Origin: Flagellatimonas centrodinii
GTDB lineage: Bacteria > Pseudomonadota > Gammaproteobacteria > Nevskiales > Nevskiaceae
Reading direction: 5' to 3'
DNA length: 64,000 nt
NCBI RefSeq assembly: GCF_016918765.2
Contig: NZ_CP092104.1
Span: 2,914,001 to 2,978,000 of the forward strand
Position numbers and translations under genes: made by a program. Below, in pieces: positions 17,145-37,456 of this stretch. Each line of letters opens with the position of its first letter. Position 1 is the first letter of the stretch. Below the pieces are notes generated by a model. It was not told the DNA's origin and ran no database searches. It saw only the letters and a list, made by a program, of their open reading frames with translations.

Positions 17145-17204
17145 GCCCAACGCCTCAAACATCGGCGCAGTTTTTCTGCGTCCGAGTGCTTTGACTTGTT
17201 AAGC
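17145..17204 (-). repeat. attC recombination site C
   Basis: On the minus strand it runs from GCTTAAC to GTTGGGC, both perfect cores. Inner arms CAAAGCACTCGG and CCGATGTTTG pair with two unpaired bases, and the tip is a CGCAG/CTGCG hairpin with an A/T loop. Total 60 bp. The rhomboid stop codon lies inside the site and the next gene starts at its edge. Confidence 0.85.
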
Positions 17205-17883
17205 GCTGAGGTTTTAAACGGCAATAAATGATTGCACCAAGCGCCCCTAGAAAGTGTCCAATGTGATCAATTCTCAAATCTGCCGCCGCACTTGAACGCC
17301 CCTTGAATTCACCTTCTATTGCAAGCAATATTGCTAAAAACACGAATAGTGAAATTGCTGCAAGCCATTCCTTGGTGCTTAATTCCTTTTCATCTGTAAA
17401 ATATGCAGCAGCAAGACCAAAAACCCCGCCAGATATTCCAGAGACTGCAACGTTTTCCGAATAGAATAATATAGATGGCATGGATGCCGCACTTCCTACA
17501 AAAAGAACAGCCAAATACCTCTTGGCTCCAACTCTGCGTTCATAAATAGAGGCCAGACCTAAGCCAATAGCGTTCGCGGCAAGATGAATCAGGTTGCTAT
17601 GGATAAACAAGTGCGATACAGACTGCGCCGGCCACCTTAAAAGCTGATCACTGTTATTACTCAGTGCCAAAGTTCGATACAGGTTCTCATCTACGGAAAT
17701 GAAACCAAAGTTTGTTGTTAGAAGAAATATGAAAAGAATGAACACCCCTGAGCATATAGAGCCCCGAACAAGCTTTAAATTTTCAATGTAAGTAATTGGT
17801 ACGGTTTTCAAGCTACTTGGAGCTGGCTTAATAAAAACCAATAAGCCAACATAAGTCGTAGCAGAAATTAGAAACATGATCAT
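17155..17883 (-). CDS. Rhomboid-family intramembrane serine protease (integron cassette gene)
   Basis: 242 residues with about six membrane helices. Rhomboid signatures are complete: HSNLIHLAANAIG (residues 95-107), the catalytic GISG with Ser151, and HIGHFLGALG with the catalytic His207. It should cleave transmembrane segments of client proteins. Its ATG overlaps the stop of the upstream PH-domain gene (ATGA), so the two were translated together and lie in one cassette. The region is AT-rich relative to the chromosome. With the upstream gene disrupted by an IS, its expression may now depend on the element. Confidence 0.88.
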   Translation of the reverse strand: MIMFLISATTYVGLLVFIKPAPSSLKTVPITYIENLKLVRGSICSGVFILFIFLLTTNFGFISVDENLYRTLALSNNSDQLLRWPAQSVSHLFIHSNLIHLAANAIGLGLASIYERRVGAKRYLAVLFVGSAASMPSILFYSENVAVSGISGGVFGLAAAYFTDEKELSTKEWLAAISLFVFLAILLAIEGEFKGRSSAAADLRIDHIGHFLGALGAIIYCRLKPQRLTSQSTRTQKNCADV

Positions 17884-19906: not shown

Positions 19907-21138
19907 GGAAACACTGATCAAGTGTCTGAATTTTGCGCCGCTCCGCACTTGGGCGCCAAGAGTCGGCTGACTTTGCGGTTTTCAGCACGTTTGGCATGAG
20001 AATCGCTCAGTTCTTCCCGATATTCGGGCTCTTTCGCATATTTGCCCACTGATTCTGCTTGCTGCAGACGCAATTCATCTGCTGGGCTCGGGGATTCGTC
20101 GGGCGGCAATCAGCAGATTGGCCAGCCCGAACAGGCTGTAAAGCTGGGCGGTGTTCTTGAACAAGCCCCGATAGCGAGCCTTCCGATGCCTGAACAGGTT
20201 CTTGATGATGTGAAATGGGTGCTCGACCTTGGCACGCAGGCTGGATTTCAGTTGTTCGGTTTGCTGAAGCAGCCGTCCGCCTTCGGTGTCAGGGAGTTTG
20301 CGTCGCTTGCCCGGTCGCATCGCGATCTGCCAGGCGACGGTGTGTTCGGGGTTGCACTCTTCCCGCTTCTCCACACCCTGATAGCCCGCATCACCATGGG
20401 CGTGTCGCTCTTCGCCATGCAGCAGGGCATGGGCTTGGGTGATGTCAGCCACGTTACCCGCCGTGCCAATGAGGCTGTGCACCAGTCCCGAGGCGGCATC
20501 TACGCCGATATGGGCCTTCATGCCGAAGTGCCACTGGTTGCCCTTCTTCGATTGATGCATCTCAGGATCTCGCTCGCCTGCTTTGTTCTTTGTCGAAGGC
20601 GAAGCAGCAATCAGGGTGGCATCGACAATGGTGCCTTCCCGCATCAGCAGTCCCTGTTCGGCCAGGTGTCCCTTGATGGTCTCGAAGATCAGCTTCGTCA
20701 GCCCGTGGGTTTCCAATAGCCGCCGGAACTTCAGCACCGTGGTGGCATCCGGGGACGACTCCCGTCCCAGATCAATGCCGACAAACCGGCGAATTGCGCC
20801 AGAGTCGTAAATCGCATCCTCGATCCCCTCGTCGGAGAAACCAAGACATTGCTGGGCAACGTACATCCGCAGCATGCGTTCACAGCCTAGGGGAGGTCGA
20901 CCATTGCCCGCCTTCGGGTAGAAGGGATCGATGACCGCAAGCAGTGCAGGCCAGGGCGTTGCGGCATCAATCTTCGATAAAAACCGATCCTGCCGCGTCT
21001 GACGTGGCTTGGCGGCATATTCGGCATCAGCAAAGCTGCGCTGCTTCATCACCCTCATCCCCGTGGAATTCGTCAGCAATATTTTCTCATGTCCAGTCAA
21101 TCGCAAAAAGCGTTTGAGGGGACTTGATCAGTGTTTCC
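19907..21138 (-). mobile_element. IS5-family insertion sequence, copy 1 (1232 bp)
   Basis: Ends GGAAACACTGATCAAGT and its inverted complement ACTTGATCAGTGTTTCC; CTAG is duplicated outside (19903-19906 and 21139-21142), the target typical of the IS5 group. Carries one transposase gene. It has the same length, orientation and, as far as compared, the same sequence as copy 2. Confidence 0.94.
20075..21058 (-). CDS. IS5-family transposase, copy 1
   Basis: 327 residues from ATG 21058 (MRVMKQRSFADAEYA); ATG 21049 is an alternative and a longer frame to 21106 reads into the IS end. DDE residues lie in GTIVDATLIAA, GDAGYQGVEK and RAKVEHPFHIIK. The N-terminal DUF772-type domain has GRPPLGCERMLRMY. 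It appears intact and so probably active, able to supply both copies. Confidence 0.93.
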   Translation of the reverse strand: MRVMKQRSFADAEYAAKPRQTRQDRFLSKIDAATPWPALLAVIDPFYPKAGNGRPPLGCERMLRMYVAQQCLGFSDEGIEDAIYDSGAIRRFVGIDLGRESSPDATTVLKFRRLLETHGLTKLIFETIKGHLAEQGLLMREGTIVDATLIAASPSTKNKAGERDPEMHQSKKGNQWHFGMKAHIGVDAASGLVHSLIGTAGNVADITQAHALLHGEERHAHGDAGYQGVEKREECNPEHTVAWQIAMRPGKRRKLPDTEGGRLLQQTEQLKSSLRAKVEHPFHIIKNLFRHRKARYRGLFKNTAQLYSLFGLANLLIAARRIPEPSR

Positions 21139-21358: not shown

Positions 21359-22590
21359 GGAAACACTGATCAAGTGTCTGAATTTTGCGCCGCTCCGCAC
21401 TTGGGCGCCAAGAGTCGGCTGACTTTGCGGTTTTCAGCACGTTTGGCATGAGAATCGCTCAGTTCTTCCCGATATTCGGGCTCTTTCGCATATTTGCCCA
21501 CTGATTCTGCTTGCTGCAGACGCAATTCATCTGCTGGGCTCGGGGATTCGTCGGGCGGCAATCAGCAGATTGGCCAGCCCGAACAGGCTGTAAAGCTGGG
21601 CGGTGTTCTTGAACAAGCCCCGATAGCGAGCCTTCCGATGCCTGAACAGGTTCTTGATGATGTGAAATGGGTGCTCGACCTTGGCACGCAGGCTGGATTT
21701 CAGTTGTTCGGTTTGCTGAAGCAGCCGTCCGCCTTCGGTGTCAGGGAGTTTGCGTCGCTTGCCCGGTCGCATCGCGATCTGCCAGGCGACGGTGTGTTCG
21801 GGGTTGCACTCTTCCCGCTTCTCCACACCCTGATAGCCCGCATCACCATGGGCGTGTCGCTCTTCGCCATGCAGCAGGGCATGGGCTTGGGTGATGTCAG
21901 CCACGTTACCCGCCGTGCCAATGAGGCTGTGCACCAGTCCCGAGGCGGCATCTACGCCGATATGGGCCTTCATGCCGAAGTGCCACTGGTTGCCCTTCTT
22001 CGATTGATGCATCTCAGGATCTCGCTCGCCTGCTTTGTTCTTTGTCGAAGGCGAAGCAGCAATCAGGGTGGCATCGACAATGGTGCCTTCCCGCATCAGC
22101 AGTCCCTGTTCGGCCAGGTGTCCCTTGATGGTCTCGAAGATCAGCTTCGTCAGCCCGTGGGTTTCCAATAGCCGCCGGAACTTCAGCACCGTGGTGGCAT
22201 CCGGGGACGACTCCCGTCCCAGATCAATGCCGACAAACCGGCGAATTGCGCCAGAGTCGTAAATCGCATCCTCGATCCCCTCGTCGGAGAAACCAAGACA
22301 TTGCTGGGCAACGTACATCCGCAGCATGCGTTCACAGCCTAGGGGAGGTCGACCATTGCCCGCCTTCGGGTAGAAGGGATCGATGACCGCAAGCAGTGCA
22401 GGCCAGGGCGTTGCGGCATCAATCTTCGATAAAAACCGATCCTGCCGCGTCTGACGTGGCTTGGCGGCATATTCGGCATCAGCAAAGCTGCGCTGCTTCA
22501 TCACCCTCATCCCCGTGGAATTCGTCAGCAATATTTTCTCATGTCCAGTCAATCGCAAAAAGCGTTTGAGGGGACTTGATCAGTGTTTCC
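21359..22590 (-). mobile_element. IS5-family insertion sequence, copy 2 (1232 bp)
   Basis: Same ends as copy 1, with CTAG at 21355-21358 and 22591-22594. Only 216 bp of the AbiJ-like gene separate the two elements, in the same orientation. Recombination between them would delete one copy plus that segment. Confidence 0.94.
21527..22510 (-). CDS. IS5-family transposase, copy 2
   Basis: The translated product is identical to that of copy 1 over its full length. The two insertions are therefore recent or kept identical by gene conversion. Confidence 0.93.
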   Translation of the reverse strand: MRVMKQRSFADAEYAAKPRQTRQDRFLSKIDAATPWPALLAVIDPFYPKAGNGRPPLGCERMLRMYVAQQCLGFSDEGIEDAIYDSGAIRRFVGIDLGRESSPDATTVLKFRRLLETHGLTKLIFETIKGHLAEQGLLMREGTIVDATLIAASPSTKNKAGERDPEMHQSKKGNQWHFGMKAHIGVDAASGLVHSLIGTAGNVADITQAHALLHGEERHAHGDAGYQGVEKREECNPEHTVAWQIAMRPGKRRKLPDTEGGRLLQQTEQLKSSLRAKVEHPFHIIKNLFRHRKARYRGLFKNTAQLYSLFGLANLLIAARRIPEPSR

Positions 22591-26224: not shown

Positions 26225-27331
26225 TTAGGGGTGTGCGAGCGCGATTTCGGCGCTGCCCAGACATTCCGCGCCGTCGTAGAGCACCAGATATTGCCCCGGG
26301 GCCGCCGCCCGCTGTGGGGCTTCAAAGCGAACCGACAGTGCGCCCGCCGTTTCGGCGGTCACTGTGCAGTCCTGCAGGGCCTGACGATGGCGGATGCGCC
26401 CCTGCAGGCGCCCCGGCAGCGTTTGCGGGCGCCGGATCCAGTGGAAGCGGTCCGTATCGATCCGCGTGCTCATCATCTGCGGATCTGCCGGGTCCTGCGA
26501 GACCACCAGTTCGCGTTGCGGCAGCCGCTTGGCCACCACGTACCACGGCGCTTCCTCCGCGCCGCGGCGGCCGCCGATATGCAGCCCCTTGCGTTGCCCA
26601 AGCGTGAAGTGGTGCAGCCCGGGGTGTTCGCCCACCCGTGCACCGGTGGTGTCGACAATGGCGCCGGGGGCATCCTTCAGGTGCTGGGCCAGAAAGTCGC
26701 GGAAGCGCCGCTCACCGATAAAGCAGATGCCGGTGGAATCCTTCTTCTTGTGCACCGGCAGGCCGGCGGCGAGCGCGATCTGCCGCACCTCGGGCTTGGT
26801 GAGATGGCCGATGGGGAACATCACCCGTTCCAGCTGGGCCTGGGTGACGGCGGCGAGGAAGTAGGTCTGGTCCTTGTCTTCGGTCACCGATCGCAGCAGC
26901 CGCGGGCCGTCGGGCCGGTGGTCGATACGGGCGTAGTGGCCGGTGGCAATGCCGTCAGCGCCGAGGCGGAAGGCGTATTCGCGAAATGGCTGAAACTTCA
27001 CTTCGCGGTTGCACAGCACGTCCGGGTTGGGCGTCTTGCCGGCGGCGAGGTCGGCAAGAAAATGGGCGAACACCCGGTCCTTGTAGTCGGCGGAGAAGTC
27101 GACCCGCTGTAACGGGATGCCGATTTCCTCGGCCACCGCACGGGCATCCTGAAAGTCCTCGGCGGCGCGGCAGTAGCCGTCTTCGTCCTCCTCCCAGTTC
27201 ACCATGAACAGCCCGGTGACCCGGTAGCCCCGTTCCTTCAGCAACCAGGCACTCACCGAGGAGTCGACGCCACCGGACAGGCCGACCACGACATGGCTGC
27301 CCGCGGGCAGCGGATGATCGTTGATGTCCAC
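26225..27331 (-). CDS. mnmA: tRNA-specific 2-thiouridylase MnmA
   Basis: 368 residues from a GTG start (MDINDHPLPAG). It thiolates U34 of Lys, Glu and Gln tRNAs. The PP-loop SGGVDSS is at 19-25, the catalytic Cys107 lies in PNPDVLCNRE, and the second Cys203 in STGICFIGER; the C-terminal beta-barrel follows. It is downstream of nudJ on the same strand with a 7-bp gap, the same neighbours as in E. coli, although here hflD is absent and acnA follows. Confidence 0.97.
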   Translation of the reverse strand: MDINDHPLPAGSHVVVGLSGGVDSSVSAWLLKERGYRVTGLFMVNWEEDEDGYCRAAEDFQDARAVAEEIGIPLQRVDFSADYKDRVFAHFLADLAAGKTPNPDVLCNREVKFQPFREYAFRLGADGIATGHYARIDHRPDGPRLLRSVTEDKDQTYFLAAVTQAQLERVMFPIGHLTKPEVRQIALAAGLPVHKKKDSTGICFIGERRFRDFLAQHLKDAPGAIVDTTGARVGEHPGLHHFTLGQRKGLHIGGRRGAEEAPWYVVAKRLPQRELVVSQDPADPQMMSTRIDTDRFHWIRRPQTLPGRLQGRIRHRQALQDCTVTAETAGALSVRFEAPQRAAAPGQYLVLYDGAECLGSAEIALAHP

Positions 27332-27338
27332 GGCGGGC

Positions 27339-27791
27339 TTACAAGTGGCGGATCACCGACAGCGGTACCCGCTGCCCGGCCCAGTGATCGTCGATACAGC
27401 GCAACACCATCGGGCTGCGATGGCGCTCGGGGCAGGCGGCAATCTCGTCGCGGCTCATCCACAGTGCGCGGACGATGCCCTCATCCAGGGGGCGGTCCGG
27501 GTCATGGCGAATGGCGTCCGCGGCAAACGCCAGCCGCACGAACGTATAGGGCAGCCCGTCCGGCTGATACTCGTAGACGCCGATGAGGTGGGTCGGCTCG
27601 ACATGCCAGCCACTCTCCTCGAGGGTCTCGCGACGCGCGCCTTCGGTGAAGCTCTCGCCGTACTCCCAGTGGCCGGCGGGTTGATTGAGCACCAGCACGC
27701 CCCCCGCGGACTCTTCGATCAGCAGATAACGGCCCTCGCGCTCCACCACGCAGGCCAGCACCAGGTGCGGCGGCTCCGGCGCGGTGCTCAC
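27339..27791 (-). CDS. nudJ: Nudix hydrolase NudJ
   Basis: 150 residues from GTG 27791. The Nudix box is complete at residues 40-62 (GHWEYGESFTEG...RETLEESGW). NudJ hydrolyses thiamine-precursor and other pyrophosphates; pairing with mnmA supports the name. The start codon overlaps the gspN stop in GTGA. A longer frame reading to 28130 lies inside gspN and is not coding. Confidence 0.88.
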   Translation of the reverse strand: MSTAPEPPHLVLACVVEREGRYLLIEESAGGVLVLNQPAGHWEYGESFTEGARRETLEESGWHVEPTHLIGVYEYQPDGLPYTFVRLAFAADAIRHDPDRPLDEGIVRALWMSRDEIAACPERHRSPMVLRCIDDHWAGQRVPLSVIRHL

Positions 27792-28567
27792 GGCAGGGGC
27801 AGGCGGCCGCTGCGCTGGATGCGGTACCAGCCTTCGGCATCGGGGCGCCCCAGGCTGTTGAGCATGTTGCGCAGGATGGGCGGTGCATCGGCCTTGGCCC
27901 GCACCCGCAGGTCGGCAGCCTGGCGGCGGTCGGCGTACTGTCGGGCGGTGCCGTTGACCTCCAGCGGGCCGTCCAGCGCGCTGACGGTGGCCAGCAGGGT
28001 GGGGGGCTGATCGTCGACGCCCGGCTCGGTGCTCAGCACGGCCTCGAAATCGCCCAGCACCAAGGGATCGCGCAACAGGGTCGAGACGACCCCCTGCAGG
28101 GTGAGCACGCCGTCGATCTGCTGCGGCCATTGGTCGCGCACGGTCAGGTCGGTGAGGTTCAGACGGAACTGGCCATCAATGGGCAGAAAGCCCTGGCCGA
28201 CGGCTTGCAGCAACTGCTTCAAATTGCCCGCCGCCTGGGTGTCGGCCAGCGCCAAGGTGCCGCCGGGGCTGGCTTGAACCTGCCCGGTAAAGACGCTGCC
28301 CAGGGCTTCACCCTCCAGTTGGTAGCGCAACCGGGCGGTCAGCAACGTCCACGGGCTGAGTTGCCAACGGGCTTCATCGACCCAGCGCCGCTGGCCCTCG
28401 ACCACACCGGTAATTCGGCCCTGAACCAAGGTGCCACTGAGGCCGCTGATGGTCACCGGCAGGGGTTGTGGTGCGAACCACGCCACCAGGTTGGCGACAG
28501 GGGCCAGGGTGATCAGACCGTAGACAAAGGCGATGACGCCGAGCAGGGGGGCGAGCCAGCGAATCAT
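27788..28567 (-). CDS. gspN: Type II secretion system protein GspN
   Basis: 259 residues. One N-terminal membrane helix (about 5-28) is followed by a periplasmic beta-rich domain with VTISGLSGTLVQG and ARWQLSPWTLLTARLRYQLEG, characteristic of GspN. GspN is an accessory inner-membrane component. It overlaps gspM by 4 bp upstream and nudJ by 4 bp downstream. Confidence 0.88.
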   Translation of the reverse strand: MIRWLAPLLGVIAFVYGLITLAPVANLVAWFAPQPLPVTISGLSGTLVQGRITGVVEGQRRWVDEARWQLSPWTLLTARLRYQLEGEALGSVFTGQVQASPGGTLALADTQAAGNLKQLLQAVGQGFLPIDGQFRLNLTDLTVRDQWPQQIDGVLTLQGVVSTLLRDPLVLGDFEAVLSTEPGVDDQPPTLLATVSALDGPLEVNGTARQYADRRQAADLRVRAKADAPPILRNMLNSLGRPDAEGWYRIQRSGRLPLP

Positions 28568-31263: not shown

Positions 31264-31973
31264 AAGGCGGGCACCGTCGGGGTGTTGCCATCGTTGTCGA
31301 CGGTGGGTGCGACGCTCTCCGCTGCCGGTTCACCATCCGTGACCTCTGCAGCGGTGCCTGCGGCCCCGGTCAGGACAGCAGCGGCCTGAGGCGACAGGCC
31401 GGGCCGGAAGCGCCAGCGCAGCAGGCCCCAGTCTTCGGTTTCCAACTGCAGTTCGATCATGCCGGGTACCCCGTCCCGCTCCGGCGGCCATTCGTCCTGC
31501 CACTCGCGGGCCTCGTCGAGGAAGCGCCAGCGCAGCACGTCGACCCGCTCCAGCAGCGGCAGTTCGACGACGGCGGAGTCCTGCGCCCGGTCGAGGACCC
31601 GCCAGCTGTCGCGGTACAGGGTGCGATCGGCCAGGCGGTAGCGCACCCGCTCCAGCGATGCCCGCGGCGCCAGCAAGGGGTTCCGCCAGCCGCCGCGAGT
31701 GAACAGAAGGCCCTCGCCGCCGACCGACATCAGCGGCGGCTGAAGGTCGCCGAAGCCATCGCGGACCGGTCGTGCGCGGACTTGCTGAAGGTCGTCGCGG
31801 ACTTTGCGGAATGTGCGTTGGTAGCGGGCCGTGCGGTCCATCGCCGCTTCGACGTCGACCCGTGCGGTGAGCACGCTGCGCAATCCGCCATAGGCCATCA
31901 CCGACATGACGGCGAACACCAGCAGCACCACAATCAGCTCGAGCAGCGTGAACCCGCGCTGTGCACCGTTCAC
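31260..31973 (-). CDS. gspJ: Type II secretion minor pseudopilin GspJ
   Basis: 237 residues from a GTG start. The prepilin peptidase site is QRG|FTLLELIVVLLVFAV. The C-terminal half has the GspJ pattern LERVRYRLADRTLYRDSW and an extra Ala/Thr-rich tail beyond the usual end. It forms the tip complex with GspI and GspK. It overlaps both neighbours by 4 bp. Confidence 0.93.
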   Translation of the reverse strand: MNGAQRGFTLLELIVVLLVFAVMSVMAYGGLRSVLTARVDVEAAMDRTARYQRTFRKVRDDLQQVRARPVRDGFGDLQPPLMSVGGEGLLFTRGGWRNPLLAPRASLERVRYRLADRTLYRDSWRVLDRAQDSAVVELPLLERVDVLRWRFLDEAREWQDEWPPERDGVPGMIELQLETEDWGLLRWRFRPGLSPQAAAVLTGAAGTAAEVTDGEPAAESVAPTVDNDGNTPTVPAL

Positions 31974-32353
31974 GGCGTGCCACCACTGCGGGGGTCACGC
32001 AGGAAGGCAGAGACACTGGCAAGACTGGCATCCTGACGATCCTCCCGCGCCACGCTGACATCAATGCGGCGCAGCCGATCGTCCGGGGTCTCCTTGACCT
32101 CAGCAGACCAGCGCCAGTCGATGCCGCCCATGTCCTCGGTGCCGTTGCTGCGGCCGGTGCCGGGCCAGGTGGGCTGGGCCATGAGATCGGTGAGACGGTT
32201 GTGCGCCACCCACATCGCCAGTGTCTTGTCGCGCAGGTAGCCGGCGTTGTCGGCATAGCGCGCCATGCCGCTGATGATGGCGCCCATGGCGATGGCCAGA
32301 ATGGCCACCGCCACCAACACTTCAACCAGGGTGAACCCGCGGGGGCGCTTCAT
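31970..32353 (-). CDS. gspI: Type II secretion minor pseudopilin GspI
   Basis: 127 residues from ATG 32353 (MKRPRG|FTLVEVLVAVAILAI). MWVAHNRLTDLMA and the WRWSAEVKETPDDRLRRIDV strand pair are typical of GspI. A TTG at 32362 would overlap the gspH stop as TTGA and add three residues; the ATG is preferred. Confidence 0.93.
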   Translation of the reverse strand: MKRPRGFTLVEVLVAVAILAIAMGAIISGMARYADNAGYLRDKTLAMWVAHNRLTDLMAQPTWPGTGRSNGTEDMGGIDWRWSAEVKETPDDRLRRIDVSVAREDRQDASLASVSAFLRDPRSGGTP

Positions 32354-32358
32354 CGCTA

Positions 32359-32907
32359 TCAAACGTCGTCGTCAGCACGACGGCGCTGCACCCGGCCAAG
32401 CGCATCCACCTCAATCCGGTAGACGGCATCGAGACCGGGCACGCTGAGGTCGATGACCATCGGCGTCGCCTCGCCACTGGACAGAAACAGGCCCTGGGGG
32501 TCCATCGATGCATCGGGCTTGAGGTCGCTCTGCGCCGGTGGCATGACGCGCCCCTCGACTCGCAGCGTCATTTCCACCGGCTCGGTGATCGGCCGCGAGC
32601 GCAGGGGGCCCGACTCGACGTACGGCATCCAGCGGCCATCACCCGACAGCATCACCCACTGGATGGCGCGGTCGGTATGGCGGAAGCCGATCAGCAGACC
32701 CTGCAGCTCGGCCTCCTCCTGCGCCAGCACCATCAGCCGCTCCAACCGCCGGGATTCATTGTCGAGGGTATCGCCCTGGGCACGGTCGCCCACCGACAAC
32801 ACGGCGAAGTTGATGATGACGCCGATGATCAGCACCACCACCAGAATCTCCAGCAGCGTGAAGCCGCGTTGGCTGGCGCGGATGTGGCCGGGGGTGGGGA
32901 TGCGCAC
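32359..32907 (-). CDS. gspH: Type II secretion minor pseudopilin GspH
   Basis: 182 residues from GTG 32907. The prepilin signal is ASQRG|FTLLEILVVVLIIGVI. The body has NESRRLERLMVLAQEEAELQG in two recognisable parts (RRLERLMVLAQEEA), typical of GspH, which joins the tip complex to the GspG filament. Confidence 0.92.
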   Translation of the reverse strand: MRIPTPGHIRASQRGFTLLEILVVVLIIGVIINFAVLSVGDRAQGDTLDNESRRLERLMVLAQEEAELQGLLIGFRHTDRAIQWVMLSGDGRWMPYVESGPLRSRPITEPVEMTLRVEGRVMPPAQSDLKPDASMDPQGLFLSSGEATPMVIDLSVPGLDAVYRIEVDALGRVQRRRADDDV

Positions 32908-32939: not shown

Positions 32940-33380
32940 CTATTCGATGTTCCAGTTGCCGATGTCGGCGGCCGCGCCTTCACCCCCCGGGCGGTTGTCG
33001 GCGCCAAGAGAGAAGATATCGAACTCGCCCTTCACGCCCGGGTTGAGGTACTGATAGTCGTTGCCCCAGGGATCTTTCGGCAGCGATTTGACGTAGCCGC
33101 CGCTCTTCCAGTTGCGGGCCTGCGGTTCGCCCGAGGGCTGACTGACCAGGGCATCCAGGCCCTGCTGGGTGCTCGGGTAGTTGAAGTTGTCGAGCTTGTA
33201 GAGATTCAGCGAGGATTCCAGCACCCGGATGTCCTGCCGGGCCTTGGCGATGCGGGCATCGTCGGGCCGGTCCATGATGCGCGGCACCACAACCGCGGCG
33301 AGAATGCCGAGGATGACCACCACCACCATGATCTCGATCAGCGTGAAGCCGCGGCTGCGGCGAGCGTTCAACTGGGGCAT
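32940..33380 (-). CDS. gspG: Type II secretion major pseudopilin GspG
   Basis: 146 residues. The class III signal RSRG|FTLIEIMVVVVILGIL is followed by LYKLDNFNYPSTQQGLDAL and DPWGNDYQYLNPG; the calcium-site region near the end (SLGADNRPGGEG) is conserved. It is the major subunit of the pseudopilus and the first gene of the gspG-N operon. gspC, D, E and F are not adjacent and must lie elsewhere. Confidence 0.97.
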   Translation of the reverse strand: MPQLNARRSRGFTLIEIMVVVVILGILAAVVVPRIMDRPDDARIAKARQDIRVLESSLNLYKLDNFNYPSTQQGLDALVSQPSGEPQARNWKSGGYVKSLPKDPWGNDYQYLNPGVKGEFDIFSLGADNRPGGEGAAADIGNWNIE

Positions 33381-33431
33381 TGCAGTCTCGATTCTATTCA
33401 GGGGCCGGCAGGGCTGCCGACGTCGGGCGCG

Positions 33432-34079
33432 ATGATAACAAAGGGCCTGTTACTGTCCGTGTGGCGTCGTGCCGCCCCTTGGAGACCACCGCTGGCGCTG
33501 TTGGTTCTGATGATGGTGCTGCAACTGGCCCCGGTGGCCTGGGCCGATCTCCTGGTGTGGCAGCGGGGCGCCATCGAGGCCGGGCAATGGTGGCGGCTGT
33601 GGACCGGCCAACTGCTGCACCTCAGCGCCTGGCACCTGATCCTGAATGGACTCGGTCTGATGGTCTTCATGCTGCTGTGTCCGGTGCGTTGGGGCTGGCA
33701 GGGCTGGACCGTGCGCGGCCTGTGGCTGGGCGCTGCCGTCGGCCTCGGGCTGCTCTGGTGGGTGCCATCCTTGCACCGCTACGTCGGGTTATCCGGATTA
33801 CTGCATGGATTGTTCGTGCTAGGGCTGTGGCCCCAGGCCCGGCAGCGTGACGGTGTGGCGATCGCCTGCCTTCTGTATCTGGTGGCCAAGCTGGGGTATG
33901 AGGTGATCGCGGGTGCGCCGGTGTCGGATGAAGTACTGATTGGCGGGCGGGTAATCACTCAATCCCACCTGTTCGGGGCCCTCGGGGCTGTCATATTTTT
34001 GTCTGGTTGTGAAGCCTTGACGCGACTGCGTGCTGCGGTCAATGTCTCGGCCCCCGATACATCGAACGACGAAAAATGA
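33432..34079 (+). CDS. rrtA: Rhombosortase (rhomboid-like GlyGly-CTERM protease)
   Basis: 215 residues with about six membrane helices. The motifs HLILNGLGLMVF (His68), GLSGLLHG (catalytic Ser121) and QSHLFGALGA (catalytic His179) match the rhombosortase branch rather than GlpG. Rhombosortases cleave the GlyGly-CTERM tail of surface proteins that leave the periplasm through type II secretion. The gene is divergent from gspG with only 51 bp between them, and its stop overlaps fabD by 4 bp (ATGA), so it is the first visible gene of the fab operon. Confidence 0.85.
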   Translation: MITKGLLLSVWRRAAPWRPPLALLVLMMVLQLAPVAWADLLVWQRGAIEAGQWWRLWTGQLLHLSAWHLILNGLGLMVFMLLCPVRWGWQGWTVRGLWLGAAVGLGLLWWVPSLHRYVGLSGLLHGLFVLGLWPQARQRDGVAIACLLYLVAKLGYEVIAGAPVSDEVLIGGRVITQSHLFGALGAVIFLSGCEALTRLRAAVNVSAPDTSNDEK

Positions 34080-35014
34080 CTTACGCAATGCTCTTTCCGG
34101 GGCAGGGCTCGCAGTCCGTCGGCATGCTGCAGTCGCTGCCGTATCCCGAGATCCGGCAGACCTTCGAAGCAGCCTCGGACGCGTTGGGTTGGGACCTGAC
34201 AGGGCTGGTGCGAGACGGCCCGGAGACACAGCTGAACCAGACCGCCCGCACCCAGCCAGCACTACTGGCAGCCGGAATCGCCCTTTGGCGGGTCTGGCAG
34301 CAGGCGTCACCGCCTGCGCCGGCCGCGCTGGCCGGTCACAGCCTCGGCGAGTACACCGCGCTGGTCGCGGCCGGCGCGCTCGATTTTGCCGATGCATTGC
34401 GGTTGGTGGCGCTGCGCGGCGAGCTGATGCAGAACGCAGTGCCGGAAGGCGAGGGCGGCATGATCGCGGTGATCGGTCTCGACGATGCCGCTGTTGAGGC
34501 CTTGTGTGCGGACTGCCCGGTGGATGCCGTGTTGTCGCCGGTCAACTACAACGCCCCGGGCCAGGTGGTGGTGGCCGGGGCGCAGACCGCGTTGGCCTGG
34601 CTTGAAGCCAACGGCAAGGCGGCCGGTGCCCGCATGCTGGTCCGCCTGCCGGTGTCGGTCCCGTCGCACTGTGCCTTGATGCGGGGCGCCGCCGAGCGGC
34701 TGGCCGAACGGCTGGCGGAGACGGCTATCGGGGCTTGCCATATTCCCGTCATCCACAATGTGGATGGTCGGCCCCGAAGCGACGCGGCGGCCGTGCGTGA
34801 GGCGCTGGCCGCGCAGTTGTACCAGCCGGTCCGCTGGACCGCCTCGATCGGCCACCTGCGGGACATCGGCATACAGCGGTATATAGAATGTGGCCCCGGC
34901 AAGGTTCTTGCCGGATTGAACAAGCGCATCGTCAAGGGTGTCGACGTATATGCGCTGGAAGAACAAGGCGCCCTGGACGCCGCCCGCGCCGCGATCGGTG
35001 TGGCGACGGCCTGA
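34076..35014 (+). CDS. fabD: Malonyl-CoA:ACP transacylase FabD
   Basis: 312 residues. FPGQGSQ at the N-terminus, the nucleophile GHSLGEY with Ser89, and VPSHCALM with the catalytic His. It loads malonate onto ACP for fatty-acid synthesis. It overlaps rrtA by 4 bp and precedes fabG by 18 bp. plsX and fabH, often upstream, are not here. Confidence 0.97.
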   Translation: MTYAMLFPGQGSQSVGMLQSLPYPEIRQTFEAASDALGWDLTGLVRDGPETQLNQTARTQPALLAAGIALWRVWQQASPPAPAALAGHSLGEYTALVAAGALDFADALRLVALRGELMQNAVPEGEGGMIAVIGLDDAAVEALCADCPVDAVLSPVNYNAPGQVVVAGAQTALAWLEANGKAAGARMLVRLPVSVPSHCALMRGAAERLAERLAETAIGACHIPVIHNVDGRPRSDAAAVREALAAQLYQPVRWTASIGHLRDIGIQRYIECGPGKVLAGLNKRIVKGVDVYALEEQGALDAARAAIGVATA

Positions 35015-35032: not shown

Positions 35033-35770
35033 ATGACAGCAATTGCCCGATTTGCCGGCGAGACGGCACTGGTTACGGGTGCGAGTCGCGGCATCGGCCG
35101 GGCCATCGCGCTGCGACTTGCGGCCGAAGGCGTGACCGTGACCGGGACCGCTACCAGTGCCGCGGGAGCCGAGGCCATTGATGCCGCGCTAGCGCCTCAT
35201 GGCGGTCGTGGACGGGTGCTGGATGTGCGCGATGCCGCCGGCATCGAGACGCTGCTGGCCGACATCGGCACGCCCGGCATCCTCGTCAACAATGCGGGGG
35301 TGACCCGTGATCAGCTGTTGATGCGGATGAAGGATGAAGACTGGAACGATGTCATCGACACTGATCTCAGCAGTGTTTTCCGGCTGTCACGAGCCGTTCT
35401 GAAAGGCATGATGAAGGCACGTCATGGCCGCATAATCAGTATCGGTTCGGTCGTGGGCGCCCGTGGCAACCCCGGGCAGGCCAACTACTGTGCAGCCAAG
35501 GCCGGCCTCGTCGGGTTCTCGAAATCGCTGGCGCAGGAGATCGGCTCGCGCAACATTACGGTCAATGTCGTGGCGCCGGGCTTCATTGATACCGACATGA
35601 CCGCCGGGCTTCCCGACGACGCGCGCACCCGCCTGTTGCAGGGGGTGCCTGCCGGGCGTCTCGGCAGCCCCGAAGATATTGCCGCCGCCGTGGCGTTTCT
35701 GGCCTCCCGTGAGGCCGGCTACATCACCGGCGAAACCCTCCATGTGAATGGGGGGCTGCATATGGCCTAG
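35033..35770 (+). CDS. fabG: 3-oxoacyl-ACP reductase FabG
   Basis: 245 residues, a typical FabG: TGASRGIG cofactor site, NNAGVTRD, Ser in SIGSVVGARGNPGQ, catalytic YCAAK, and the C-terminal ITGETLHVNGG. It reduces 3-ketoacyl-ACP with NADPH. A GAGGGAGG ribosome site precedes the ATG. Confidence 0.97.
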   Translation: MTAIARFAGETALVTGASRGIGRAIALRLAAEGVTVTGTATSAAGAEAIDAALAPHGGRGRVLDVRDAAGIETLLADIGTPGILVNNAGVTRDQLLMRMKDEDWNDVIDTDLSSVFRLSRAVLKGMMKARHGRIISIGSVVGARGNPGQANYCAAKAGLVGFSKSLAQEIGSRNITVNVVAPGFIDTDMTAGLPDDARTRLLQGVPAGRLGSPEDIAAAVAFLASREAGYITGETLHVNGGLHMA

Positions 35771-35867: not shown

Positions 35868-36113
35868 ATGAGCAGTCTCGAAGAGAAAGTCAAGAAGATC
35901 ATCGCGGAGCAGCTTTCCGTGGCCGAAGACCAGATCACCCCGGAAGCTTCGTTCGTGGAAGATCTCGGTGCCGATTCTCTTGACACCGTGGAACTGGTGA
36001 TGGCGCTCGAAGAGGAGTTCGAGATCGACATCCCCGATGAAGAAGCGGAAAAGATCGTCACCTTCCAGGACGTTCTCAACTACATCCGTACGCACGCGCC
36101 GCAAAACGGCTGA
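35868..36113 (+). CDS. acpP: Acyl carrier protein
   Basis: 81 residues, acidic, with the phosphopantetheine site [18 protein letters not shown] (Ser37). It carries growing acyl chains in fatty-acid synthesis. A CAGGAGTG ribosome site precedes the ATG. Position between fabG and fabF is standard. Confidence 0.98.
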
Positions 36114-36211: not shown

Positions 36212-37456
36212 ATGAGCCGCAGTCGAGTCGTCATCACCGGACTGGGCGTGATTTCGCCGGTCGGCAATACCGTTGCCGGTGCCTGGGAAGCGCTGCTGGC
36301 CGGCCGTTCCGGCATTGGCCCGCTGACCGGCTATGACGCTTCGGCCTACTCGACTCGTTTCGCCGGGCTGATCAAGGACTTCGATGCCACCCAGTGGATG
36401 GGGCCGAAGGAAGCCAAGCGTGTTGATCCCTTCATTCATTACGGGGTCGCTGCCGCCAAACAGGCGGTGACCGATGCCGGCCTCGAGATCACCGACGACA
36501 ATCGGGAACGTATCGGGGTGTGTATCGGCTCCGGGATCGGCGGGATCGGCACCATCGAGCGCGAATGCAAGGTGCTCAGCGACAGCGGCCCACGCAGGGT
36601 GTCCCCATTCTTCGTCCCGTCGTCGATCATCAACATGGTCTCCGGCCACGTGTCGATCGACCTGGGGATTACCGGCCCCAATCTGGCCACTGTCAGCGCC
36701 TGCACCACCGGCACCCATGCCATCGGCATGGCCTACCGGATGATCGTGCACGGCGATGCCGATATCTTTGTCGCCGGAGGTGCCGAGTTCGGCTCAGCCC
36801 CCGCGGGCATGGCCGGATTCTGTCAGGCGCGTGCGCTGTCGACGCGTAATGACGCGCCAGAGCAGGCCAGTCGCCCCTTCGACGTCGATCGCGATGGCTT
36901 CGTGCTGGGGGATGGCGCCGGCGTACTGGTGCTGGAGTCACTCGAGAGTGCGAAGGCGCGCGGCGCACGCATCTACGCCGAGATTGTCGGGTTCGGCATG
37001 TCCAGCGATGCCTATCACATCACGCTGCCGCCGGAAGACGGCAACGGCGCCCGGCGCGCCATGCAGAACGCGATGCGGGATGCCGGCCTGCAACCGGAGG
37101 AGGTCGATTACGTCAACGCCCACGGCACCTCGACACCCGCCGGCGACGTTGCCGAGACCACCGCGGTCAAGGCCGCGTTCGGCGACCATGCCCGCCGACT
37201 TTGGGTGTCGTCGACCAAATCGATGACCGGGCACCTGCTCGGTGCGGCGGGCGGGCTGGAGGCGGTCATTTCGGCATTGGTGCTGCACGACCAAAAGGTG
37301 CCGCCGACCATCAATCTCGACAACCCCGACCCCAAATGCGACCTCGACTACGTGCCCCACACGGCGCGCGATGGCAAGGTCGAGGTGGTGCTGTCCAACT
37401 CCTTCGGTTTTGGCGGCACCAACGGCACGCTGGCCTTCCGTCGGTTTCGCGAATGA
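36212..37456 (+). CDS. fabF: 3-oxoacyl-ACP synthase II FabF
   Basis: 414 residues. The Cys-His-His catalytic set is in [22 protein letters not shown] and [12 protein letters not shown]; the C-terminus [13 protein letters not shown] is diagnostic. It elongates acyl-ACP chains. The gene is followed by pabB after 13 bp. Confidence 0.97.

What the first reader, a model, noticed from the sequence alone, without database searches (positions are those of the whole stretch)
33381..34079. Rhombosortase divergent from the pseudopilin operon and coupled to fabD
Rhombosortase works on GlyGly-CTERM proteins that use type II secretion. Here its gene shares a 51-bp promoter region with gspG-N, yet its stop overlaps fabD by 4 bp. 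This ties protein sorting to both secretion and lipid synthesis. It predicts GlyGly-CTERM substrates elsewhere in the genome.
Basis: partly seen in the sequence, partly recalled or inferred. Interest (0 to 1): 0.5.

Follow-up and report, generated by a model that had tools for sequence, protein, structure and literature searches.

The report
Tail-cutting protease locked to secretion genes
A membrane protease that trims the tails of exported proteins sits beside the genes of the export machine in dozens of related bacteria, and its presence goes with one optional machine part (GspN) known to carry lipid-anchored proteins, which suggests a testable partnership for placing enzymes on the cell surface.

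Summary
Window 33432-34079 (+) is a rhombosortase (TIGR03902, 136 bits, cut-off 84), 51 bp from divergent gspG-N and overlapping fabD by 4 bp. Four GlyGly-CTERM candidates were found elsewhere in the genome (two trypsin-like, one subtilase, one Calx-beta), each modestly supported alone.

The arrangement is not local. In Nevskiales all 63 relatives' rhombosortase genes examined face gspG; fabD follows in the 62 where it can be seen. Outside the order 40 of 108 loci (23 families) adjoin gspG, only 10 with fabD. The T2SS link recurs; fabD looks like a neighbour. Order genomes with rhombosortase average 5.4 GlyGly-CTERM matches, 18 without it 0.44.

Two new points. A conserved extended -10 element facing gspG (43 of 63 gaps; shuffles 0.1) lies on the rhombosortase start codon, so the gap holds a putative gspG promoter. 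And among T2SS-positive genomes rhombosortase goes with gspN (111 of 119 against 52 of 122; one genome per family 44 of 48 against 21 of 53; katG control flat). GspN carries lipoproteins through T2SS, so it may also carry rhombosortase products. That step, and any tie to lipid synthesis, is untested.

The parts
33432..34079 (+). rhombosortase (rrtA/rssP type), 215 aa; Ser121 and His179 dyad
   Evidence: TIGR03902 136.3 bits, cut-off 84; invariant residues. A GTG at 33459 is an alternative start.
33381..33431 (.). 51-bp divergent gap between gspG and the rhombosortase gene; leader of the gspG-N transcript by inference
   Evidence: conserved divergent arrangement
33432..33440 (-). extended -10 element facing gspG (TGTTATCAT on the - strand); its last three bases are the complement of the rhombosortase ATG
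   Evidence: the same kind of element without the gene in G001
33454..33459 (-). -35-like hexamer CGGACA, 16-nt spacer, inside the rhombosortase reading frame
   Evidence: consensus match only; the same scan lists a second candidate facing gspG (33420 to 33391, TCGGCA/TAGAAT)
32940..33380 (-). gspG, T2SS major pseudopilin
   Evidence: TIGR01710 193.7 bits
32359..32907 (-). gspH
   Evidence: TIGR01708 88.9 bits, cut-off 80
31970..32362 (-). gspI
   Evidence: PF02501
31260..31973 (-). gspJ
   Evidence: PF11612
30334..31263 (-). gspK
   Evidence: NF037980 262.5 bits
29070..30272 (-). gspL
   Evidence: TIGR01709 249.1 bits
28564..29067 (-). gspM-like
   Evidence: weak match to a GspM-family model, below its cut-off, and position
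27788..28567 (-). gspN, optional T2SS part
   Evidence: PF01203 98.5 bits, cut-off 29.6
34076..35014 (+). fabD; start overlaps the rhombosortase stop by 4 bp
   Evidence: TIGR00128 334.9 bits
35033..37456 (+). fabG (35033-35770), acpP (35868-36113), fabF (36212-37456)
   Evidence: fabG; acpP and fabF named by eye from the translation, order conserved
26225..27331 (-). mnmA (named by eye): boundary gene that faces fabD in family f6, where the gsp-rhombosortase block is absent
   Evidence: ORF; tblastn match upstream of fabD in 17 of 17 f6 loci

Best explanation
This is a normal rhombosortase whose gene is fixed beside the T2SS pseudopilin operon because the two serve one pathway. Proteins with a GlyGly-CTERM tail are exported to the periplasm and held in the inner membrane by the tail; the rhombosortase (S121/H179) cuts the tail (inferred from family membership and from V. 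cholerae RssP). The new C-terminus receives a glycerophosphoethanolamine-type anchor (reported for V. cholerae VesB). T2SS, probably with GspN, moves the product to the cell surface (inferred). gspG-N is read from an extended -10 promoter that lies on the rhombosortase start codon, so the two genes are physically interlocked (sequence shown, activity inferred). fabD and the fab genes behind it are a read-through neighbour, not a functional partner (inferred).
For: Family: catalytic residues. Substrates. Synteny: 63 of 63 order relatives have divergent gspG; 40 of 108 loci outside the order adjoin gspG, 38 divergent, in 23 families; seen again in named records. Tree (quick, one model): the order's rhombosortases are one side of a supported branch (97), while gspG adjacency needs 18 changes, at least 4 forced by well-supported branches, so the neighbourhood was probably gained or lost several times. 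Co-loss: at E<=1, 61 of 64 rhombosortase-positive order genomes have GlyGly-CTERM matches (mean 5.4) against 7 of 18 negatives with a fabD locus in the assembly (mean 0.44). T2SS tie: 119 of 127 rhombosortase-positive genomes of the class sample have gspG, against 122 of 242 negatives. GspN tie; control 87, 89. Promoter: 43 of 63 gaps, shuffles 0.1; 36-54 nt from the gspG start in 38 of 43.
Against: 8 of 127 rhombosortase-positive genomes show no gspG. 68 of the 108 loci outside the order are not next to gspG in the stretch held, and none of the 40 Alteromonadales loci (mostly Shewanella) is, so adjacency is not needed for function. Haft and Varghese saw no T2SS subclass marked by rhombosortase (PMC3237569, passage read). 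Three rhombosortase-positive order genomes, one of the same genus, have no GlyGly-CTERM match at E<=1. The 17 f6 genomes have weaker rhomboid matches to TIGR03902 (up to 54 bits, cut-off 84), so a divergent enzyme there is not excluded. The tree has long branches that meet (warning). The promoter is a sequence motif only. The GspN association could partly reflect ancestry above family level; 12 of 127 rhombosortase genomes have no gspN match.
Confidence: 0.72

Rival explanations
1. One reading: translational coupling to fabD ties protein sorting to fatty-acid or phospholipid synthesis, for example to supply the lipid that anchors the cut protein.
For: fabD follows in 62 of 62 order relatives where it can be seen, within 100 nt in 57 of 62 and overlapping in 21. 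V. cholerae VesB carries a glycerophosphoethanolamine group (abstract of PMC6219818; passages of PMC11389362).
Against: Outside the order only 10 of 40 gspG-linked loci have fabD and none of the 108 has it without gspG (one named locus, L358, has it without a gspG hit). About 1 kb separates the genes in 3 relatives. fabD keeps its place without the gene in G001 and in family f6.
Confidence: 0.12
2. The gene order is inherited inertia: the block arose once by chance and stayed, with no selection for linkage.
For: The order's rhombosortases form one supported group, and fabD linkage needs few changes (5 outside the order, 6 in all).
Against: gspG adjacency needs 18 changes on the quick tree, at least 4 forced, and occurs in 23 families outside the order. 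Two loci have gspG on the same strand, which points to rearrangement with adjacency kept.
Confidence: 0.2
3. The conserved ATGATAACA is a protein or translation-start constraint (Met-Ile-Thr/Ala), not a gspG promoter.
For: 53 of 64 order loci score at least 10 of 12 for the motif; 45 of these have ATG there, 43 of them in frame with the gene.
Against: Codon 2 is the rare ATA in 50 of 63 loci while ATA is 4.3% of Ile codons in the same genes (the script took an in-frame ATG followed by ATA where there was one, which favours this count, but such an ATG is found in only 6 of 72 loci not divergent from gspG). Two same-genus species keep the motif upstream of, and out of frame with, the gene. G001 has TGTTATGAT starting 45 nt before gspG with no rhombosortase there.
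Confidence: 0.1

Closest known systems
Rhombosortase / GlyGly-CTERM system (Haft and Varghese 2011; RssP-VesB of Vibrio cholerae)
   Same: Same protease family above the curated cut-off, same catalytic residues, same kind of tail on secreted proteases, several candidate targets per genome and none found beside the gene.
   Different: Here the gene is locked beside gspG-N and before fabD; Haft and Varghese describe linkage to single targets and found no T2SS subclass.
GspN-dependent T2SS transport of lipoproteins (Acinetobacter, Klebsiella PulN; PMC12802150)
   Same: gspN is in the operon that faces the rhombosortase; cargo is membrane-anchored and surface-displayed.
   Different: That work concerns N-terminal lipobox proteins; its discussion (read) does not treat GlyGly-CTERM proteins as cargo, and the term occurs once, in the reference list.
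Myxosortase / MYXO-CTERM (PMC11980579)
   Same: Tripartite C-terminal tag cut by a membrane protease, surface delivery through T2SS (passages).
   Different: Different active site, and the tag has an invariant cysteine (passages).
Bidirectional promoters (PMC12825309)
   Same: Divergent genes with interlocked promoter elements and possible RNA polymerase competition (abstract).
   Different: Here no conserved -10 faces the rhombosortase; a symmetric promoter would, by my reckoning, start the transcript inside its reading frame.

Membership tests
Rhombosortase (TIGR03902) | Score above the curated equivalog cut-off | tested here: met
   136.3 bits against 84
Rhombosortase (TIGR03902) | Rhomboid Ser/His dyad | tested here: met
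   S121 in GLSG and H179 invariant in 20 aligned rows
Rhombosortase (TIGR03902) | GlyGly-CTERM proteins in the same genome | tested here: met
   Two matches over the TIGR03501 cut-off in six-frame search (20.4 and 17.8 bits; 1 of 14 control genomes also has one over the cut-off), and two more by tail model, a related family model or eye
Rhombosortase (TIGR03902) | Cleaves the tail and allows surface anchoring | not testable with these tools
   needs an experiment
GlyGly-CTERM proteins | Over the TIGR03501 cut-off as whole proteins | tested here: inconclusive
   C2 protease 15.5 bits, at the cut-off of 15.5; subtilase 13.4, below; the C1 trypsin-like and Calx-beta proteins have no TIGR03501 match at E<=1 (Calx-beta: 81 bits to the SVAGG GlyGly-CTERM model, cut-off 150)
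GlyGly-CTERM proteins | Signal peptide, secreted-type domain, Gly-rich motif, hydrophobic stretch, basic C-terminus | tested here: met
   By inspection of the four sequences and domain matches. No signal-peptide predictor was run; one start has a lipobox-like LAAC. The C2 protease is below Pfam's trypsin cut-offs.
Type II secretion operon | gspG to gspN genes in order | tested here: met
   gspM only weakly
Sigma70 extended -10 promoter | TGN before a TATAAT-like hexamer at a set distance from the gene | tested here: met
   (43 of 63, shuffles mean 0.1, maximum 1)
Sigma70 extended -10 promoter | Drives transcription | not testable with these tools
   needs 5'-end mapping or reporters

The most novel reading that the evidence does not exclude
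GspN, the optional T2SS part, is the handler of lipid-anchored cargo in general, and rhombosortase products are its main cargo in many bacteria. gspN and rhombosortase then form one surface-display module, of which the Nevskiales locus, with the gspG promoter written over the rhombosortase start codon, is the tightest genetic form. This would give GspN a cargo in species such as V. cholerae, where no lipoprotein T2SS effector is confirmed (PMC12802150).
Probability: 0.42. Interest if true: 0.7.

Novelty: new variant of a known kind. Interest (0 to 1): 0.52.

Why it matters
How rhombosortase products reach the cell surface after cleavage, and what GspN carries in species without known T2SS lipoproteins, are both open. 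The linkage and co-occurrence found here join the two questions and make them testable by single gene deletions in harmless strains. The locus is also a clear case of a start codon placed inside an opposite promoter-like -10 box.

Tried and rejected
TIGR03501 at the default E-value found nothing, even in the 14 control genomes: a 22-position model hardly reaches that E-value, so I relaxed it and built a tail model from relatives. The relaxed search is noisy: at E<=10 it rings in 11 of 14 control genomes, over the cut-off in 1; at E<=1 in 5, over the cut-off in 1. The weaker hits L006 and L007 and L381 were rejected: the ORFs listed around them show no secreted protein ending in such a tail. 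L382-L384 are short partial matches in small frames and were not opened. Three of the four candidates were rows of the tail model, so their scores are by construction; only the C1 trypsin-like protein (E 0.0245) is an independent find of that search.

I considered a GTG start at 33459 because two same-genus species start downstream of the motif. I prefer ATG 33432 because in L052 the motif ATG is the only start codon upstream of the conserved part, and in L043 the only other is a later TTG. I considered a symmetric bidirectional promoter and rejected it: it would place the rhombosortase transcript start after its own ATG, and no conserved -10 faces that way.

G019, G033 and G062 lack a rhombosortase match. 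G019 and G033 have no close fabD match and G062 only a partial one, so I treat the locus as missing from these assemblies and left them out of the comparison; they have 3, 1 and 13 GlyGly-CTERM matches. The 18 'negatives' are G001 and the 17 genomes of f6; one of their fabD matches (G076) has a stop inside.

Limits: of 128 matches outside the order (E<=1e-20; 126 of the 127 genomes with a match are over the cut-off) I examined 110 (30 returned as loci, 80 fetched), and the window rhombosortase matched 108 of them by tblastn. Some stretches end at contig ends, so adjacency counts are minima. One order gap (L099) could not be parsed and at least one (L049, 690 nt) looks misparsed. 'One genome per family' rests on the handle order G085-G241 and leaves out the window's order. 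One katG control is not a null distribution. Where gspC-F lie in this genome was not sought. No structure prediction was run.

Full report
1. What is there. The window is C1:2914001-2978000 of a 3.61 Mb genome in two contigs. ORF 33432-34079 (+) is a rhombosortase by the curated equivalog model TIGR03902 (136.3 bits, cut-off 84). S121 and H179 are invariant in 20 aligned rows. On the other strand gspG-N runs from 33380 to 27788. fabD overlaps the last 4 bp of the rhombosortase gene and is followed by fabG, acpP and fabF.

2. Substrates. Six-frame search with TIGR03501 gives two matches over the cut-off and two under it. The two are a trypsin-like protein on contig C2 with 107 Pro-Thr pairs, a lipobox-like start and a GGGGGG tail, and an S8 subtilase. 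A tail model built from 24 tails, three of them this genome's own, adds a second trypsin-like protein at C1:3329860, E 0.0245. A Calx-beta protein about 2 kb from the first was found by eye and has a sub-cut-off match to a GlyGly-CTERM family model (81 bits, cut-off 150). None of these hits is in the window. As whole proteins the C2 protease is at the TIGR03501 cut-off, the subtilase below it (13.4 against 15.5 bits), and the other two have no match at E<=1. Single-protein support is therefore modest, and the group evidence below matters.

3. Co-distribution in the order. Of 85 order genomes, 64 have a rhombosortase over the cut-off. GlyGly-CTERM matches at E<=1 occur in 61 of 64 positives (mean 5.4, median 4) and in 7 of 18 negatives with a fabD locus in the assembly (mean 0.44). 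T2SS alone does not bring GlyGly-CTERM: 14 of the 17 genomes of family f6, and G001, have gspG but no rhombosortase over the cut-off. The f6 genomes do have weaker rhomboid matches to the model, up to 54 bits.

4. Gene order. All 63 relatives' loci have gspG on the opposite strand upstream, and 62 have fabD downstream (the other contig ends). G001 has gspG facing fabD directly, with no rhombosortase match between and no GlyGly-CTERM match. In all 17 genomes of f6 fabD faces mnmA, and the gsp-rhombosortase block is absent there, with gspG elsewhere in 14. Outside the order, 40 of 108 loci have gspG beside the gene, 38 of them divergent; fabD follows in 10, always together with gspG. One named Woeseiaceae locus has fabD without a gspG hit. 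The 40 loci fall in 23 families. In 80 named loci, gspG adjoins in 28, among them all 12 placed in Nevskiales; none of 40 Alteromonadales loci has it. On a quick tree of 174 proteins the order's genes are one side of a supported branch (97); gspG adjacency needs 18 changes, at least 4 forced; the program warns of long branches that meet. The 4-bp overlap with fabD is seen in 18 of 62 relatives, any overlap in 21, at most 100 nt apart in 57.

5. The promoter-like element. The exact pattern TGNTATNAT facing gspG occurs in 43 of 63 order gaps against a mean of 0.1 (maximum 1) in 30 rounds of shuffles; facing the rhombosortase, 0 of 63. It lies 36-54 nt from the gspG start codon in 38 of 43. The rhombosortase ATG falls inside it: in 38 of the 43 the element ends in CAT on the gspG strand, that is ATG on the other. 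Codon 2 is then ATA in 50 of 63 loci, while ATA is 4.3% of Ile codons in the same genes; the script preferred such an ATG where one was in frame, and the same is found in 6 of 72 loci not divergent from gspG and 1 of 38 divergent ones outside the order. That this is a gspG element is shown best by G001, which has no rhombosortase there and has TGTTATGAT starting 45 nt before gspG, and by two same-genus species in which the motif is upstream of, and out of frame with, the gene. In f6, 0 of 14 gspG genes have the pattern within 150 nt. Outside the order it is seen in 9 of 38 divergent gspG-adjacent loci and 1 of 72 others, so the overlap with the start codon is mainly an order feature. In the window the element is 33432-33440 (-) with a -35-like CGGACA at 33454-33459; a second, weaker candidate facing gspG lies at 33420-33391. 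By inference RNA polymerase at this promoter would cover the first codons of the rhombosortase gene; where its own transcript starts is unknown.

6. GspN. In a class-wide sample of 369 genomes, rhombosortase is in 127 (126 over the cut-off), gspG in 241 and gspN (PF01203) in 172. Among the 241 with gspG, gspN is in 111 of 119 with rhombosortase and 52 of 122 without (odds ratio 18.7, p 2e-18). With one genome per family (G085-G241, 101 with gspG) it is 44 of 48 against 21 of 53 (odds ratio 16.8, p 3e-8). katG, a patchy unrelated gene, shows none: 44 of 119 against 42 of 122, and 15 of 48 against 20 of 53. Where rhombosortase was seen beside gspG, gspN is present in 39 of 40 genomes; in the other 85 outside the order (not beside it, or not examined) in 74, so the tie is not made by the linked loci alone. 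The p-values assume independence and are too small by an unknown amount.

7. Literature. PMC3237569 (parts 1-2 of the text and passages read) describes the family, linkage to single targets and no T2SS subclass. PMC6219818 (abstract and a passage) and PMC11389362 (passages) report cleavage and a glycerophosphoethanolamine-type group in V. cholerae. PMC13393428 (abstract) reports that the tail and RssP suffice for membrane association. PMC12802150 (discussion and passages) shows GspN-dependent lipoprotein transport. No paper in the library was found that links gspN or gspG gene order to rhombosortase: searches, and passages of four papers that hold a GspN-type and a rhombosortase-type term (PMC12802150, PMC12369372, PMC7771236, PMC10128026); PMC5861075 was not opened. 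Most subscription papers are not in the library.

8. Verdict. The enzyme is an ordinary member of its family. The interest lies in the order-wide lock to the pseudopilin operon, the promoter-like element written over a start codon, and the strong tie to gspN, which suggests that GspN handles rhombosortase products. The lipid-synthesis reading is not supported.

Noticed in passing
window 17155-17883 (-): A second rhomboid, below the rhombosortase cut-off (41 bits, cut-off 84), about 16 kb away and near transposase-like ORFs. V. cholerae also has a second rhomboid (GlpG) that cuts a GlyGly-CTERM protein at another site.
   Followed up: partly
window 20075-21106 and 21527-22558: Two identical copies of a transposase-like ORF in direct repeat, 1452 bp apart.
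   Followed up: no
L105:7405-13875 and L008:11-5197 (contig C2, 146.6 kb): A type IV pilus-like cluster on the small contig: secretin, ATPase, several prepilin-like ORFs and a protein with a weak Shufflon_N match, within about 5 kb of two of the four GlyGly-CTERM candidates.
   Followed up: partly
L008:5471-7591 (-): One protein seems to have a lipobox-like N-terminus and a GlyGly-CTERM tail, with 107 Pro-Thr pairs, nearly all in the linker before the tail: possibly two anchors on one protein.
   Followed up: no
L097, L102, L104: In genus g11 three genomes have about 1 kb between rhombosortase and fabD; in L102 it holds an opposite-strand ORF of 215 aa.
   Followed up: partly
L244, L256: Family f159 has gspG downstream of and on the same strand as rhombosortase instead of divergent.
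   Followed up: no
window 33373-33390 and 33977-33989 (+): Two terminator-like matches, one at the gspG start and one near the end of the rhombosortase gene; consensus matches only.
   Followed up: no
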